A stretch of DNA of 41,172 nucleotides, taken from NCBI GenBank assembly GCA_015233825.1, contig JADGIS010000004.1, positions 1 to 41,172 on the forward strand, read 5' to 3'. Origin of the DNA: Erysipelotrichaceae bacterium RD49. GTDB taxonomy: Bacteria; Bacillota_I; Bacilli_A; Erysipelotrichales; Erysipelotrichaceae. The notes under the pieces were generated by a model. That model searched no databases, was not told the DNA's origin, and was given only the letters and a program-made list of their open reading frames with translations. This document shows, piece after piece, positions 18,484 through 26,003 of the stretch. Position 1 is the stretch's first letter; every line of letters starts with the position of its first letter. The position numbers were made by a program, and so were the translations under genes.

Positions 18484-19665
18484 TTACTCTTCTTCAACAT
18501 CCAGCTCATCCTGGCCAAACGCATCATCGTAAACGTTGGCTGTCCCGTCCAGTTCGGCTTTTTGAAAGCTTGGATGGCTGGCTTTGTCTTGGGCTTGCTG
18601 CATGGCTTTGGCCAGCTTGCTTTCTTTTTCCTTGCGCAGCTCTTTAATGCGCAGCTGCCCACAGGCTGCATCGATATCTGAACCATGTTCCTTGCGGATC
18701 GTTACACCGATATTCTGCTTTTTGAGTACATCGTAAAACTTCATCGCTTCCGCGCGGGTAACCGGCTTGTAGCCGTTTTCATCTACGCTGTTATAGGGAA
18801 TCAAATTGACATAGCAGGTATAGGGCCGCAGCAGGCTGGCCAGCTGGCGGGCATGTTCGATGGAGTCATTGACCCCTTTGAGCAGGATGTATTCAAACGT
18901 CAGCTTGCGGTTGTTTTCTTTGCAATAGTAAGCGACCGCATCCATCAGCTGGTCGAGCGGATAGGCTTTATCGATCGGCATGATCTGGCGGCGCAGCTCA
19001 TCGTTGGGGGCATGGAGCGAAATGGCCAGATTGTATTGGTAATGGCCATCGGCAAACTGCTTGATGCGCGGCACAATGCCGGAGGTGGAAATCGTAATGT
19101 GGCGCGAACCAATCGCTAAGCCGCGGTCATGGTTGGCAGTTGCTAAAAAGTTCATGACATTGTCATAGTTATCGAATGGCTCACCGGTTCCCATCACGAC
19201 GATATGGCTTAAGCGTTCATTTTTCTTATCCAGTTCAGCCTGGACATGCATGATCTGGCCCATCATTTCCCCGCTCGATAAATCGCGCTGCTTTTTGGTC
19301 AGGCCCGAAGCGCAGAACGTGCAGCCCATATTGCAGCCGACCTGGCTGGACACGCAGATTGAATTGCCGTAATCAAAAAGCATCAAAACACTTTCCAGCA
19401 AAGCCCCATCTTCGGTCTTGAACAGAAACTTGGTCGTGCCATCGCTGGCGACCTGCTTGCGTACCAATTGAAGCGGATTAAAGGTAAAGTCTTTTTTCAG
19501 CTCTTCGCGGGTCTGCTTGGAGAGGTTGGTCATCTGATCAAAGTCATAGACGCGCTCTTTATATAACCAGGCAAAAATCTGCTGGGTACGGAATTTCTTC
19601 CATCCTTTGGATTCACACCAGTCTTCCATCTGTTTATAGCTCATATCGTAAATACTTTTCATCAT
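18484..19665 (-). CDS. rlmN: Dual-specificity 23S rRNA/tRNA adenine-C2 methyltransferase
   Basis: A 393-residue radical-SAM enzyme that methylates A2503 of 23S rRNA and A37 of some tRNAs. The N-terminal helical domain begins SIYDMSYKQMEDWCESKGW. The radical-SAM cluster motif is SQVGCNMGCTFCASGL (CxxxCxxC). Later motifs include VVMGTGEPFDNYDNVM, LAISLHAPND and the C-terminal catalytic cysteine in HGSDIDAACGQLR. After that comes an extra 50-residue charged and acidic tail (ends DELDVEEE), beyond the usual family length of about 345-360. The ATG at 19665 (or the next ATG) lacks a good ribosome site; the sequence just before it comes from the end of the IscB element. Confidence 0.95.
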   Translation of the reverse strand: MMKSIYDMSYKQMEDWCESKGWKKFRTQQIFAWLYKERVYDFDQMTNLSKQTREELKKDFTFNPLQLVRKQVASDGTTKFLFKTEDGALLESVLMLFDYGNSICVSSQVGCNMGCTFCASGLTKKQRDLSSGEMMGQIMHVQAELDKKNERLSHIVVMGTGEPFDNYDNVMNFLATANHDRGLAIGSRHITISTSGIVPRIKQFADGHYQYNLAISLHAPNDELRRQIMPIDKAYPLDQLMDAVAYYCKENNRKLTFEYILLKGVNDSIEHARQLASLLRPYTCYVNLIPYNSVDENGYKPVTRAEAMKFYDVLKKQNIGVTIRKEHGSDIDAACGQLRIKELRKEKESKLAKAMQQAQDKASHPSFQKAELDGTANVYDDAFGQDELDVEEE

Positions 19666-19679
19666 GTTAGGCAAGGATA

Positions 19680-19712
19680 CCCCATCCAGAACTGCTAAGC
19701 AGTTTGGGTGGC
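19680..19712. repeat. Right-end hairpin of the IscB element
   Basis: An imperfect palindrome (CCATCCAGAACTGC / GCAGTTTGGGTGG, loop TAA), about 100 bases past the iscB stop. Its core matches the hairpin at 21400-21432 in the same orientation, as expected of the subterminal imperfect palindromes of IS200/IS605 elements that Y1 transposases recognise. Confidence 0.5.
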
Positions 19713-19810
19713 CAGGAATTGCCGAACCTCCGTTTCTTTTAAGTATCCATTCGCTCTTTCGACCAGAACTAATTTCCTCATAGATGCAGCACTATGGATT
19801 TTTTTCCTGA

Positions 19811-20986
19811 TCAAGTTTTCAAAACAAAATATCCGCTTTTTCTGCGTCCAGTCATAAAGCATTCCTGTCTTTCGAATTTAACTTGATCAAAAAGGCAGGA
19901 GCCGCCAACCATATGGTCAGTTTGATTTCTCTTACGCTTATGCCCTTTGATGAAGTTGAATTGATGAATCTGGCGGTTATGCCTTCTGATCTTTTTGAGA
20001 TACAGGCATGTTTCTAATGGCTTTGCATTGAGATTGCCTGCAATGCAATAGGCGTCATTGTAATGCTCTTTAGCCAGGTTTAGTTCAATTCGCTTGTTCT
20101 TGGTCAGGTAGCCATAAGTATTGACTACTTCAATATTGGGGTTGGCTTGTTTTAATCGTTCCAGCAGCGTCCAGCGCATAATGCCCATGAAGGCTGCATC
20201 TCGATACGGCTGAGCGCGCTTAGGCAGCTTGAAGTCTTCTGGACCTTTGATCTTTCCTGACTTGATCTTTTTGTGGTATTCGTTATGACACGTTTCGCAA
20301 AGTGTAATCAGGTTGGAAGGCGAGTCGCCGCCAGTCTTCCGGCTTTCAATGTGATGCACATTTAAGACTGGATCTTTCTTTTTGCCATGGCAGTGCTGGC
20401 ATTCGTGGTTGTCTCGAAATAAAACATACTCACGAACATTCCAGAATCCTTTTTGACCGCCATTTTGGTATTCAGTTCCAGAAATATCTGGATTCTTCAG
20501 TTTCTGCGTATCAAAAGAGGCTGTTTCCACAACGATCCTGGTTACAGGAAGAATCTTTTGGACTTCTTCAATGCAACGAAGATGAGTGCCAATCTTATGT
20601 TCAACCGAGGGAGCAAGCCAGCCTTTATGTTTGGTGCGAACACGGTTGCTAAATCTTGGTGCCCGATATCTTGTCTTGCGGTTTCTTCTCGCCCGCCGCG
20701 CTTCTCTTCTAGTCGAGATCAGCTCAGTGATATCTGTTCTGTTCTGGACATCCCAGGCAAGAAGTTCTTTTTCTTTGGTTGAAGCACTCAAACCAATCTG
20801 TTTAGAACCAGCATCCACTCCAAGAGTGACGGGTTGTGTATATCTGGTTGAATCGTATAAAAGCTTGATGGTAAATGGATTTTTCTTTACCACTTTAGCT
20901 TTTCTTTCTTTTAGAAGATGACGCACTTTGCCATGCCTTTCAGTCGGCATTAAAGGTCTGCCGTCTACATCTAATACATAAACCAT
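19811..20986 (-). CDS. iscB: IscB, RNA-guided RuvC/HNH endonuclease of an IS605-like element
   Basis: A 391-residue nuclease, the compact ancestor type of Cas9. Domains in order: PLMP domain (DVDGRPLMPTERHGKVRHLL, residues 6-25), RuvC-I with LGVDAGSKQIG (Asp58), arginine-rich bridge helix (RREARRARRNRKTRYR, residues 93-108), RuvC-II with IVVETASFD (Glu154), an inserted HNH domain with zinc cysteines 196/199 and 230/233 and catalytic VHHIESRK (His211-212), RuvC-III with KEHYNDAYCIAG (His308, Asp311), and a C-terminal part starting KIRRHNRQIHQ. All nuclease residues are present. The ATG at 20986 is chosen for the GAGGA site and the PLMP start; a longer frame runs upstream into the RNA region. 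It would act with an omegaRNA encoded just upstream. Confidence 0.92.
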   Translation of the reverse strand: MVYVLDVDGRPLMPTERHGKVRHLLKERKAKVVKKNPFTIKLLYDSTRYTQPVTLGVDAGSKQIGLSASTKEKELLAWDVQNRTDITELISTRREARRARRNRKTRYRAPRFSNRVRTKHKGWLAPSVEHKIGTHLRCIEEVQKILPVTRIVVETASFDTQKLKNPDISGTEYQNGGQKGFWNVREYVLFRDNHECQHCHGKKKDPVLNVHHIESRKTGGDSPSNLITLCETCHNEYHKKIKSGKIKGPEDFKLPKRAQPYRDAAFMGIMRWTLLERLKQANPNIEVVNTYGYLTKNKRIELNLAKEHYNDAYCIAGNLNAKPLETCLYLKKIRRHNRQIHQFNFIKGHKRKRNQTDHMVGGSCLFDQVKFERQECFMTGRRKSGYFVLKT

Positions 20987-21244
20987 ATTCTTGTCCTCGA
21001 AAGAGGAATGCATCTTGGAAGCTGAAAAAGCCTTCCAGAGAAGTGTGTGAAGCATCAGCCTTCGCCAATGTTATAAGAGGTTTGTTGACCTGCCCACTGC
21101 ACCTGACCTCAGTGCTGTTTCATACAGATCCGCAGAGTCCGGAATTAGGCTGAATGTTCCAGAGTGCCTATTTCAACTTGTTTAAGGTTGATTCTCAAAT
21201 CACGGAGTCAGTTAAGACTCAGGCTAGTGTTACGTTTCATTGAC
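20987..21244 (-). ncRNA. Probable omegaRNA (HEARO RNA) of the IscB element
   Basis: About 250 untranslated bases directly upstream of iscB on the same strand, the standard place for the omegaRNA that guides IscB. It contains several possible stems, among them GAGTC-TTAACT-GACTC near 21209-21224, and paired tracts further on around AGGTC/GACCT near 21080-21110. The 5' boundary is proposed at ATGAAACG near 21241, because HEARO elements start next to ATGA-like motifs. The guide would then be the roughly 16 bases just upstream (minus strand, above 21244). Identity rests on position and general shape; no covariance model was run. Confidence 0.65.
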
Positions 21245-21342
21245 TTTTATATAAATGAGACCTTTCAACATTAGAGACTCGCGCTTTATGTAAAGATCTG
21301 ATGACAATTAGGCTTTCCGAGAATAATTATAAAAGTCATTGA
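21237..21342. repeat. 15-bp inverted repeat pair around a 76-bp core
   Basis: The arms are 21237-21251 (TCATTGACTTTTATA) and 21328-21342 (TATAAAAGTCATTGA), 14 of 15 complementary. The 76-base core has no gene. It could be a miniature element, an internal part of the omegaRNA leader, or the trace of an earlier insertion at the same site. Confidence 0.45.
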
Positions 21343-21399
21343 GACAGATCACTAGTCAATCAGGCTTGAAACAGATGCAGGAAAGCTTCTTATTTCAAG

Positions 21400-21432
21400 C
21401 CCCATCCAAATTGCAAGGCAGTTTGGATGGGG
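21400..21432. repeat. Left-end hairpin of the IscB element
   Basis: A 15-bp stem with one mismatch (CCCCATCCAAATTGC / GCAGTTTGGATGGGG, loop AAG). It is the same-orientation relative of the hairpin at 19680-19712. Just inside it is another inverted repeat (GGCTTGAAA at 21363 and TTTCAAGCC at 21393). The adjoining stretch to 21711 shows no gene. Confidence 0.5.
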
Positions 21433-21711
21433 TCATTGACTACACAACCTCCTGTTGCTTTCTTTGTTCTGAATGGATTGTTGATCTTTTCCTTCAGTGT
21501 AGTCACAAATGGCCTTTTTTCCAATTCAGCCACCAATCGGATCTTGAACCCGGCCCTTTCGCTGCTCGAAATTTTGTCCTTTCCTTTAAGACGTACGTCT
21601 TCGTTTCAATTTTGCAAAGCTTGAGCGGTGCCGCTGCTTTCGCCAAAGAAAAGGCACAGACGCATGATCTGTACCTTGGTTCTGGCAATGGAAAGAAAAG
21701 GGCTGTCGTAT

Positions 21712-22993: not shown

Positions 22994-25141
22994 TTATTCC
23001 TCCAGATTCATCGGATGGACGTTGAAGTCCACTTTGCATTTTGATGCATTCTTTTCAAACCATAAGGCCAAGTCCCATAAAGATTGGATCAAATGCCCAT
23101 CCTCTTTGGATTTGACGATCAGCCGAAAGCGGGACTGCTTGGTCCGCTGGGAGATTTCGGCCGGACCTAAAACCTCCAGATCCTTTCCTTCTAATATCAA
23201 TTTGAGCTCCAAGGCTTTTTTATAGGCCGTATTGGGATCTTCATGGCGGATGACAACCGTAGCCAAATACACATAGGGTGGATAGTTTCCGGCATGGCGA
23301 AACTTCATCTCTTTGGTGAAGAACGCTTTATAGGCATGACGGACAATGCACTGCAAAACAAAGTGGTCGGGATTGAAGGTTTGGATGATCACCTCGCCTG
23401 GCTTATCGCCCCGCCCCGAGCGGCCAGCCGCCTGTTCGGCCAGCTGATATGCTCGTTCAGAAGCTAAGTAGTCGGGCCTGGCCAGAATGGAGTCAATCGA
23501 CAAGATCCCGCACAAGGTAATGTCATGAAAATCCAGTCCTTTGGCAATCATCTGGGTCCCCATCAAAATATCGCCATGGGCTGCAAATTCGGAAAGCAGC
23601 TTTCCATGCGCACCTTTGGTTTTGGTGGTGTCATGATCCATCCGGATAATGCTGGCCTTGCCAAAAAGAGAGCGGCTTTCTTCTTCCAGGCGTTCGGTTC
23701 CCTGGCCGGTATGGGTAAGCATGGTGCTGCCGCAGTTTGGGCACTGGTGGATCATCGGATAGCGGCGTCCGCACACATGGCAGACCAGGGCATCTTCGCC
23801 TTTATGATATGAAAGCGGGACATTGCAGTCTTCGCAGCGCAGATACTCGTGGCAGCTCTGGCAGCGCACAGTTGGCAGGTATCCGCGGCGGTTGAGCAGG
23901 ATCATCGATTTCTGCTCCAGGGCTAACCGCTTTAAAACCGCCTGGATCAAGTCGGCAGAGTAGTTGCAATAGGTTTGAGTCCGTTTCAAATCGACTAACC
24001 GGATGCGGGCATCCTGACCTGCGGCCCGTTTGGGAATTTCCGCCAGGCCATAAACACCTTTGATCGCTCTGGCATAGGAATCCAGGCTGGGCGTTGCGGA
24101 AGCAAGAACCAGCTTGCACCCATGTGCCTGGGCCCGGAGCTCGGCCGCATCTCTGGCATGATAGCGGGGAGCATGATCCTGTTTGTAGCTGGTGTCATGC
24201 TCTTCATCCATAATGATCAGCCCCAGGTTTTGAAGCGGCAAAAAGACGGATTTGCGCGTGCCAATCACAATGCAGGGGCCGGCCTGCGTAAGATTCTGCC
24301 AGACGGAGACCATCTCGGAATCCGACAAGCGGGAATGGCAGGCATAAACATCGACTTCAAAGCGTGAGGCGATCCGCTCTTCCATCATCGGGGTTAAGGA
24401 GATTTCCGGTACCAGAATCAAAACCTGCTTGTTTTGTTTGAGCGCATCTTTAGCCAGATGGAAAAAGACCTCCGTTTTGCCGGATCCGGTCACCCCATGG
24501 AGCAAAATCGTCTGCTTGTCTGACTGGCGAATCGCCTGCAAGGCATTTTCCTGATAGGCATTGAGCTTAGGCCAAGGCTGCTGGGGGCGGTGGGGCAGGG
24601 TTCCATGGTTGATGATCCGCTTTTCTTTTTCCAAAAGCCCTTGCTTGACCAAAGCATTGATCCGATAGTCCGAAAACTGTTCTTTGGCCTCTTTGAGCAA
24701 GCATTCCTCGGGCAGATTGTCATAGGTTTCCTGCAGTGCTGCTGAAAGGCTTGGCATCTGCTTCAAGCAGCATTTTTTCACCCACAAGGCGTAGGAAAAA
24801 CCAGGCTTGGCCGTCCTGGCATCCAAAGCTTTTGGCAGCATACAGTGGATCATGGCCATCATCGGTGAAATCGTCTGATGGGCGAGCTGTCTGGCCAGTT
24901 CCATCTGCTCCCCATCCAAAACCGGCTTGTCATCGAGAATCTGCAGGATTTCTTTGATCTTCTCTTTCGGGGTCTCGGGCTGATCCGTCTGGGCCATCAC
25001 CAGGCCAGTCAGCTTTTGCCGGCCAAAAGGCACGAAAACCCGGCAGCCAGGCTGGACGGGTTTTGAAGAAAAGTAGGTAAAGGTTTTGGATAAGGCAATG
25101 GTGGGATGTTCAACCATTACCTCATAGTAAGACTCAGGCAC
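22994..25141 (-). CDS. priA: Primosomal replication restart helicase PriA
   Basis: A 715-residue 3'-5' DNA helicase that reloads the replisome at stalled forks. The N-terminal DNA-binding domain is seen as YYEVMVEHPTIALSKTFTYF and GCRVFVPFGRQKLTGLV. Walker A is LLHGVTGSGKTEVF, Walker B is DEEHDTSYKQ. The zinc-binding insertion has eight cysteines (CQSCHEYLRCEDC, then CHVCGRRYPMIHQCPNC). Helicase motifs V/VI are GTQMIAKGLDF and QAAGRSGRGDKPGEV. The start is unsure: a GTG at 25141 behind GGAGG keeps the conserved first strand and overlaps the previous stop by eight bases; an ATG at 25117 would remove part of it. Confidence 0.95.
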   Translation of the reverse strand: MPESYYEVMVEHPTIALSKTFTYFSSKPVQPGCRVFVPFGRQKLTGLVMAQTDQPETPKEKIKEILQILDDKPVLDGEQMELARQLAHQTISPMMAMIHCMLPKALDARTAKPGFSYALWVKKCCLKQMPSLSAALQETYDNLPEECLLKEAKEQFSDYRINALVKQGLLEKEKRIINHGTLPHRPQQPWPKLNAYQENALQAIRQSDKQTILLHGVTGSGKTEVFFHLAKDALKQNKQVLILVPEISLTPMMEERIASRFEVDVYACHSRLSDSEMVSVWQNLTQAGPCIVIGTRKSVFLPLQNLGLIIMDEEHDTSYKQDHAPRYHARDAAELRAQAHGCKLVLASATPSLDSYARAIKGVYGLAEIPKRAAGQDARIRLVDLKRTQTYCNYSADLIQAVLKRLALEQKSMILLNRRGYLPTVRCQSCHEYLRCEDCNVPLSYHKGEDALVCHVCGRRYPMIHQCPNCGSTMLTHTGQGTERLEEESRSLFGKASIIRMDHDTTKTKGAHGKLLSEFAAHGDILMGTQMIAKGLDFHDITLCGILSIDSILARPDYLASERAYQLAEQAAGRSGRGDKPGEVIIQTFNPDHFVLQCIVRHAYKAFFTKEMKFRHAGNYPPYVYLATVVIRHEDPNTAYKKALELKLILEGKDLEVLGPAEISQRTKQSRFRLIVKSKEDGHLIQSLWDLALWFEKNASKCKVDFNVHPMNLEE

Positions 25142-26003
25142 GCGCCTCCAGTTTCTCAAACAGCGGCTTCAGATTGGCCTTTTCATCGCGCACCGGAATG
25201 ATTTTCCCCTCTTTGGAGGTCGCCACAACCGTCAAGCCAGGACCATGACCGGAAGTAAAGGAATCGGAATGGACAACAACGCCGATTGTCACCGCCCCTT
25301 TTTGATAATGCGGTCCATAGGTGCTGTCATGATCGAGCACTGCGACGAAATCGCCAAAGCGCAGGTTGTTCAAGCCAAACTGTTCATTGGCTTCTTTGTC
25401 CTGCGTCATGATGTCATAGTCGCCGGACATCATCGTTGAAGAGCCCACACCACTGCCCATGAGAAAAGCGGGTAAGACGGTTACAACTGGAAAATGAACA
25501 TTTCCCTCTTCGTCCACTTCCAAATCCATGACATCTAATACATCCGGATCGATATTCATCCAGAACACTTCCGGGGCATCTGCGGTTTTTAAGCCCTGGC
25601 CTTTGGTGCGGATCAGGAAATTTTCCGTACCATCCATTTTGTCGAGATCATCTTTGGAAAAGTAAGCCATGCAGTGTTCAATCCCGCCGTGGGTGCCGGT
25701 CACCAGCCCCTTGGCCCCCTTGCCGGCGCCGGAAATGCAGGTCACTGGATTGCCGATGCAGGCAAACGTCTGCACCGCTTCATTTTTCTTTGGATCCGGG
25801 TTGGCCATCGATACGCCGGGTTCCACATGGTCGCCAGCGATGTTCATGCAGTTATCGCCAATGGCGTGCGAGTAGGTGATGCCGCCGACAGCGATGGTGA
25901 TGCGCGCTCTGCCATCATACCCGCCGCGATAGTGCGGACTCGCTGGATGGTCAACCGCCGCGTTGACTGCCATTTCTACCAATTGGTCGCGATTCATTTC
26001 CAT
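25134..26003 (-). CDS. DUF4438 domain protein
   Basis: A 289-residue cytoplasmic protein found in Firmicutes and a few other groups, function unknown. It has glycine-rich and metal-like motifs: ITIAVGGITYSHAIGDNC, HVEPGVSMANPD, CIGNPVTCISGAGKGAKGLV, THGGIEHCMAYF, and near the end VLDHDSTYGPHYQKGAV and VHSDSFTSGHGPGL. No signal peptide or membrane segment is seen. The start ATG has AGGAAAAG upstream; a second in-frame ATG two codons later is equally possible. Its stop overlaps the priA start, so it heads the priA-rsmB operon. The DUF name is from memory of the pattern. Confidence 0.75.
   Translation of the reverse strand: MEMNRDQLVEMAVNAAVDHPASPHYRGGYDGRARITIAVGGITYSHAIGDNCMNIAGDHVEPGVSMANPDPKKNEAVQTFACIGNPVTCISGAGKGAKGLVTGTHGGIEHCMAYFSKDDLDKMDGTENFLIRTKGQGLKTADAPEVFWMNIDPDVLDVMDLEVDEEGNVHFPVVTVLPAFLMGSGVGSSTMMSGDYDIMTQDKEANEQFGLNNLRFGDFVAVLDHDSTYGPHYQKGAVTIGVVVHSDSFTSGHGPGLTVVATSKEGKIIPVRDEKANLKPLFEKLEARA

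What the first reader, a model, noticed from the sequence alone, without database searches (positions are those of the whole stretch)
20987..21440. Intact IscB nuclease with an adjacent omegaRNA region, unaccompanied by tnpA
The nuclease at 19811-20986 keeps every visible catalytic residue: RuvC Asp58, Glu154, His308, Asp311; HNH His211-212; both zinc pairs. About 250 untranslated bases sit upstream on the same strand, where HEARO/omegaRNAs are encoded. The locus lacks tnpA, so it is either mobilised in trans or kept for another role. At 391 residues it is smaller than the well-studied OgeuIscB and could be a useful natural variant. The guide would be the bases just upstream of the RNA scaffold on the minus strand.
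Basis: partly seen in the sequence, partly recalled or inferred. Interest (0 to 1): 0.75.

Follow-up and report, generated by a model that had tools for sequence, protein, structure and literature searches.

The report
IscB transposon replacing host gene's ribosome-binding site
This is a damaged copy of a repeated RNA-guided nuclease transposon (IscB) that jumped exactly between a host gene's ribosome-binding site and its start codon, and its right end carries a replacement ribosome-binding site set next to the start codon by an RNA hairpin, a layout we find again in IscB elements of other phyla and for which we found no earlier description.

Summary
The IscB is real (catalytic residues match solved IscBs) and a HEARO/omegaRNA lies upstream, but this copy is damaged. 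A 123-bp insertion with a 5-bp direct repeat splits the omegaRNA (64.9 bits, below the Rfam cut-off of 83; eleven other HEARO loci in the genome pass it). The 391-aa ORF ends at a nonsense codon shared by seven copies; intact siblings run about 40 residues further. The genome holds over 20 related copies plus 58-64-bp micro-elements. Ends are exact: GTCAATGACC...CCTAACAT(G), inserted 5' of ATGRA. This copy splits rlmN's Shine-Dalgarno (SD) from its start codon.

New result: the right end carries its own SD (GGAGG), then a stem-loop, then ATG. In this genome all 8 SD-bearing copies abut true start codons; none of 16 SD-less copies and none of 9 micro-elements do. The same layout (SD, outer stem whose sequence changes but pairing is kept, a few nt, ATG) recurs in IscB elements of Bacillota, Fusobacteriota and Gammaproteobacteria, usually at start codons.

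Best reading: an ordinary IscB/HEARO element type with an apparently undescribed portable ribosome-binding site that keeps the interrupted host gene translated. The function is inferred, not tested.

The parts
19663..21440 (-). Whole IscB/HEARO element, left end GTCAATGACC at 21440, right end CCTAACATG at 19663
   Evidence: Ends defined by comparison of about 18 copies and by restored reading frames when flanks of copies C11 and C273 are joined
19811..20986 (-). iscB ORF, 391 aa, catalytic residues kept, C-terminus truncated
19695..19810 (-). Nonsense codon TGA (end of the listed ORF) followed by the untranslated rest of the iscB frame, ...RKLVLVERANGYLKETEVRQFLATQTA*
   Evidence: Intact siblings read TTA here; seven copies share the stop
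21049..21440 (-). omegaRNA (HEARO) region including left-end hairpin
   Evidence: RF02033 E 3e-12, 64.9 bits, below cut-off 83; siblings match from the left end onward
21229..21351 (-). 123-bp insertion with imperfect terminal inverted repeats, flanked by ACTAG on both sides, splitting the omegaRNA
   Evidence: Absent from the sibling copies; no second full copy; similar ends next to CTAG on contigs C54 and C263; TIRs can pair
21441..21456 (-). Deduced guide AACAGGAGGTTGTGTA
   Evidence: Left flank immediately 5' of the scaffold (sequence); guide position as established for IscB
21448..21453 (-). Orphaned original Shine-Dalgarno AGGAGG of rlmN
   Evidence: Same-genus relatives without this element have the SD directly before the rlmN ATG
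19727..19731 (-). Element-borne replacement Shine-Dalgarno GGAGG
   Evidence: Present in the 8 start-site copies, absent from 16 others
19670..19723 (-). Right-end stem-loop: outer stem GGCAA (19723-19719)/TTGCC (19674-19670) around the terminal hairpin
   Evidence: Pairing kept with different sequences across elements; MFE fold
19658..19662 (-). Target motif ATGAA (TAM-like) = rlmN start
   Evidence: Right flank of the copies is ATGRA
18484..19662 (-). rlmN, host gene, 392 aa from this ATG (the listed TTG start at 19674 lies inside the element)
   Evidence: TIGR00048; N-terminus conserved in relatives

Best explanation
The locus is a decayed copy of a multicopy IscB/HEARO (IS200/IS605-type) element that was inserted precisely between the Shine-Dalgarno (SD) of rlmN and its ATGAA start. 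Shown: the element ends, the split, the insertion in the omegaRNA, the nonsense codon, and an element-borne SD followed by a stem-loop whose pairing is kept across distant elements and that ends a few nt before the host start codon. Inferred: in the mRNA the stem-loop folds the spacer away so that the element's SD sits at a usable distance from the AUG, and the host gene stays translated by direct initiation, helped in many relatives by an iscB stop codon lying 0-8 nt from the AUG (translational coupling). Elements with this portable ribosome-binding site can therefore live at start codons inside host operons, which in turn can transcribe guide, omegaRNA and iscB. Also inferred: movement in trans by a Y1 TnpA that recognises the end hairpins, with IscB from intact copies cutting empty sites. 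This copy probably no longer makes a working complex but may still serve rlmN.
For: Exact junctions; empty rlmN site in relatives; SD-start association in this genome 8/8 against 0/16 and 0/9 micro-elements; by hand over 57 elements 32/5/0/20, automatic rule 32/8/3/15, p 7e-6, not corrected for relatedness; orphaned SD in the left flank in 13/19 start-site elements against 1/16 others; downstream genes with family matches from their first residues, e.g. L9, RNase P, DUF4317; outer stem GGCAA/TTGCC, GGCGA/TCGCC, GCCGT/ACGGC, GGCGG/CCGCC, GACCAC/GTGGTT, GGCACAA/TTGTGCC, ACAAGGA/TCCTTGT, CTCGA/TCGAG; MFE folds leave SD and AUG single-stranded on either side of the stem; five near-identical copies in G291 all carry the SD whether or not at a start, so it is element-borne.
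Against: No expression data. The stem could serve only transposition (single-strand hairpin). Five SD-bearing elements are not at start codons. In a longer context the window right end has a competing fold, and folding energy is not unusual. A 5-bp helix can be found in about 32% of shuffled arms. Coupling to iscB translation could do the work without the stem.
Confidence: 0.65

Rival explanations
1. One reading: an intact, compact IscB with a functional adjacent omegaRNA.
For: Catalytic residues kept; HEARO hit E 3e-12. An inserted hairpin at a junction might be tolerated.
Against: 123-bp insertion between the guide-proximal stem and the core; nonsense codon removing about 40 C-terminal residues, in the region expected to hold the TAM-interacting domain.
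Confidence: 0.08
2. The SD-like sequence and stem have no role in host translation. GGAGG is a by-product of iscB coding (ERR or ETEV codons), the stem is a TnpA end structure, and start sites are seen only because ATGRA is common at starts and such insertions are less harmful.
For: In relatives GAAAGGAGG reads as ERR in frame with iscB (sequence). The terminal hairpin is shared with the left end and with micro-elements. Some SD-bearing elements are not at starts.
Against: SD varies where the protein could stay the same (AGA AAG against AGG AGG) and follows start-site location. The 5' arm of the outer stem is missing in micro-elements that moved anyway, so it is not needed for movement, yet it keeps pairing elsewhere. 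In decayed iscB copies GGAGG is kept.
Confidence: 0.2
3. Host-gene translation continues mainly by termination-reinitiation: ribosomes finishing iscB (stop 0-8 nt from the host AUG, or TGATG/ATGA overlap) start the host gene; SD and hairpin are secondary.
For: iscB stops next to or overlapping the host AUG in several elements, e.g. L075, L079, L091, L092, L083, L132, L095 and the Pseudoalteromonas plasmid (sequence).
Against: In this genome the iscB frame stops in the hairpin loop, about 30 nt before the rlmN ATG, and start-site copies with broken iscB exist (C66, C99, C166, C265).
Confidence: 0.25

Closest known systems
IscB/HEARO (OMEGA) elements of the IS200/IS605 superfamily; Rfam RF02033, NCBIfam NF040563
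   Same: Protein family, upstream omegaRNA, guide in the left flank, A/NTGA-type motif at the right flank (IsrB TAM NTGA, PMC9581776), usual absence of tnpA (PMC9755519)
   Different: Right end carries an SD and a structured spacer placed before host start codons; this copy has a split omegaRNA and a truncated frame
IS200/IS605 non-autonomous elements (PATE/MITE-like)
   Same: Micro-elements with one hairpin, same ends and same target
   Different: Derived from an IscB element, with target ATGRA read on the iscB strand
Ribosome-binding sites with a hairpin between SD and start codon (phage T4 gene 25, recalled from memory)
   Same: A hairpin shortens a long SD-AUG spacer
   Different: Here the site is carried by a transposon and serves whichever gene it lands before; no expression data
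IStrons (IS605 plus group I intron)
   Same: A transposon that limits damage to its host gene at the RNA level (from memory)
   Different: No intron was reported in the window by Rfam at gathering threshold; the proposed means is translation initiation, not splicing

Membership tests
IscB RNA-guided nuclease | IscB family protein with PLMP/RRXRR, RuvC and HNH | tested here: met
   NF040563 1.6e-111; RRXRR 1e-64; HNH 1.5e-8
IscB RNA-guided nuclease | RuvC and HNH catalytic residues | tested here: met
   Alignment to solved IscBs
IscB RNA-guided nuclease | Complete C-terminal domain | tested here: not met
   Nonsense codon; siblings run about 40 residues further. Family identity is not in doubt; intactness is
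HEARO/omegaRNA | RF02033 over the curated cut-off | tested here: not met
   64.9 against 83 bits, interrupted copy; 11 other HEARO loci of the genome pass
HEARO/omegaRNA | Transcribed RNA that guides cleavage | not testable with these tools
   Needs RNA sequencing and a cleavage assay
IS200/IS605-type element | Subterminal hairpins at both ends, fixed short target on one side, no target duplication | tested here: met
IS200/IS605-type element | Y1 TnpA acting on these ends | tested here: inconclusive
   Two apparently full-length Y1 ORFs elsewhere in the genome, but no IscB-type ends found beside them
Structured-spacer ribosome-binding site | SD, stem-loop, AUG with kept pairing | tested here: met
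Structured-spacer ribosome-binding site | SD needed for translation of the host gene | not testable with these tools
   Needs a reporter assay

The most novel reading that the evidence does not exclude
IscB/HEARO elements are adapted to live inside operons at start codons: the right end is a conserved portable ribosome-binding site that makes the host gene depend on the element, the host operon supplies guide, omegaRNA and iscB, and the guide then contains the host's own Shine-Dalgarno, which could bias later RNA-guided activity toward other start sites.
Probability: 0.35. Interest if true: 0.85.

Novelty: new variant of a known kind. Interest (0 to 1): 0.66.

Why it matters
It would explain how nuclease-bearing transposons sit at the starts of housekeeping genes without silencing them, and why ATGA-type motifs flank HEARO elements. 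It offers a compact, testable translation element (SD, hairpin, AUG) and a route by which imprecise loss of a transposon is selected against. It also corrects a candidate tool enzyme: this copy is a damaged one, while at least six sibling copies keep open frames and omegaRNAs over the cut-off.

Tried and rejected
Rfam at gathering threshold: no hit in the window. Viral contigs with the protein and with a right-end pattern: none. A second full copy of the 123-bp insertion: none. IscB-type ends at the two full-length Y1 ORF loci: no match. The 271-bp rsmB-rlmN gap as another mobile element: no other copy, and relatives in which rsmB was seen have gaps of 165-333 bp. A mini-ORF ATGGGGTATCC...TGATG overlapping the rlmN start was considered for coupling; it exists only with the GATGAA type of junction and has no SD of its own at usable spacing. 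A first tree built on unaligned flanks was discarded for a reference-projected one, in which SD-bearing copies fall in two groups. MAFFT put some outer stems one column out of register, so pairing was tested per sequence. In that test shuffled arms reach 5 bp in about 32% of draws and arms swapped between classes in 25%, so helix length alone is weak; the strength lies in all 15 elements pairing and in the fixed position. For L095 the longest helix found was a competing one, not GCCGT/ACGGC. Literature: no paper in the held library joins IscB with start-codon insertion or Shine-Dalgarno; Weinberg 2009, Kapitonov 2016 and Altae-Tran 2021 are not held, so an earlier description there cannot be excluded.

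Full report
Observation. HEARO matches 21049-21233 at 64.9 bits, under the curated cut-off of 83, with model positions 3-50 not found.

The genome. The same element occurs over 20 times in this 2.97-Mb genome, mostly 85-92% alike and often broken; 11 HEARO hits pass the cut-off, best 117.2 bits. Against the other copies the window copy has an extra 123 bp at 21229-21351 flanked by ACTAG on both sides, with imperfect inverted repeats; similar ends next to CTAG occur on two other contigs. It separates the guide-proximal stem from the scaffold core. The iscB frame ends at TGA where intact copies read TTA; seven copies share this stop, and the intact frame runs on for about 40 residues.

Ends and target. 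The left end is GTCAATGACC, the right end CCTAACAT or CCTAACATG, and the right flank is ATGRA. Joining the flanks of copy C11 restores a complete phosphatase frame and those of C273 another frame. Micro-elements of 58-64 bp with one hairpin and the same ends sit at the same motif. Same-genus genomes G001 and G002 lack this IscB (matches there are only weak HNH hits) and have the rlmN Shine-Dalgarno directly before ATG. In the window AGGAGG (21448-21453) is left 1.8 kb from the ATG at 19662.

The right end. Sixty-four bases upstream of the rlmN ATG lies GGAGG (19727-19731), followed by a stem-loop (GGCAA/TTGCC outside, the terminal hairpin inside), then TAACATG and ATG. Copies in this genome come with GGAGG or without (AAGAATT, GCAACT) at this place. 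All eight with GGAGG abut a true start: rlmN, an ABC-F-type ATPase, a DUF4317 protein, ribosomal protein L9, murB, a probable Hpt protein, a secreted protein and a probable PTS IIA protein (the last three identified by reading the sequence). None of 16 without it does, nor any of nine micro-elements, one of them degenerate. Two SD-less copies face an ORF of more than 80 codons; we read one (C111a) as in-gene and the other (C257) as having its real start 22 codons further on behind its own AAGGAGG. In a tree the SD-bearing copies form two separate groups among SD-less ones, so these are not eight independent events.

Other genomes. In related families and orders the same layout recurs with other stem sequences, at ppaC, rnpA, a hibernation-factor gene, a GH2 gene, an M42 peptidase gene, a DUF4438 gene and others. 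Three elements with poor or no SD there (L081, L082, L121) are not at start codons. In complete genome G291 five near-identical copies of a distant IscB (about 37% identity) all carry GGAGG and stem GGCACAA/TTGTGCC; three are at start codons by our reading, two are not. Plasmids of Finegoldia, Cetobacterium, Anoxybacillus, Paenibacillus and Pseudoalteromonas show it too; Natranaerobius has it in an intergenic place; a gut-phage copy inside a gene lacks the SD. By hand the tally over 57 elements is 32 SD/start, 5 SD/non-start, 0 no-SD/start, 20 no-SD/non-start. An automatic rule over 58 elements (anti-SD pairing energy, downstream ORF of 80 codons or more) gives 32, 8, 3, 15, p about 7e-6. Neither is corrected for relatedness. 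The left flank keeps an orphaned Shine-Dalgarno in 13 of 19 start-site elements against 1 of 16 others.

Structure. SD to AUG is 50-64 nt in line and mostly 8-12 nt if the outer stem is closed. MFE folds of five elements leave SD and AUG single-stranded either side of the stem, although the folding energy itself is not unusual for the window copy and a longer context has a competing fold. In several relatives the iscB stop lies 0-8 nt from the host AUG or overlaps it (sequence), so translational coupling may add to or replace direct initiation.

Mechanism, by step. Shown by sequence: insertion between SD and ATG; a new SD in the element; a stem between them with pairing kept across distant elements. 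Inferred: the stem closes in mRNA, ribosomes use the new SD, the host gene stays on. Inferred from established IscB knowledge: guide from the left flank, cleavage of empty sites by intact siblings, movement by a Y1 TnpA in trans.

Conclusion. The first finding, an intact compact IscB, is downgraded. The element type is known; the right end as a portable ribosome-binding site is, as far as the held library goes, not described, and is the part worth testing.

Noticed in passing
G000: loci L147-L155: Micro-elements of 58-64 bp made of the left-end start, one hairpin and the right-end tail of the IscB element, at ATGRA sites; gene-free relatives that seem to have moved on their own.
   Followed up: partly
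window 21229-21351; L072, L073: A 123-bp element with imperfect inverted repeats; related ends (TGTTTCGTCTCAATGAC next to CTAG) on contigs C54 and C263 hint at an insertion-sequence family with CTAG target.
   Followed up: partly
G000 C65 (L020), C268 (L160), C269: A second, more diverged IscB family (about 48-62% identity) in the same genome, with its own HEARO over the cut-off on C268 and the SD-stem-ATG right end on C65.
   Followed up: partly
L137: Element whose right-end hairpin seems deleted, leaving GGAGG 15 nt from ATG; it lies inside a gene.
   Followed up: no
L086 (G195): An IscB directly followed by a Y1 TnpA-like ORF, a likely autonomous arrangement.
   Followed up: no
L054-L056, L059, L060 and others in G000: Several fragments of Y1 tnpA, some at contig ends, suggest a collapsed repeated tnpA that the assembly does not resolve.
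   Followed up: no
window 25134-26003 and L090: A DUF4438 gene lies in this window near the IscB locus, and in another genome (G141) an IscB element sits at the start of a DUF4438 gene; probably coincidence.
   Followed up: no
right ends, e.g. L091, L092, L095: The conserved TTCCTCCC just inside the outer stem could also pair with the SD, so the right end might switch between an open and a closed form.
   Followed up: no
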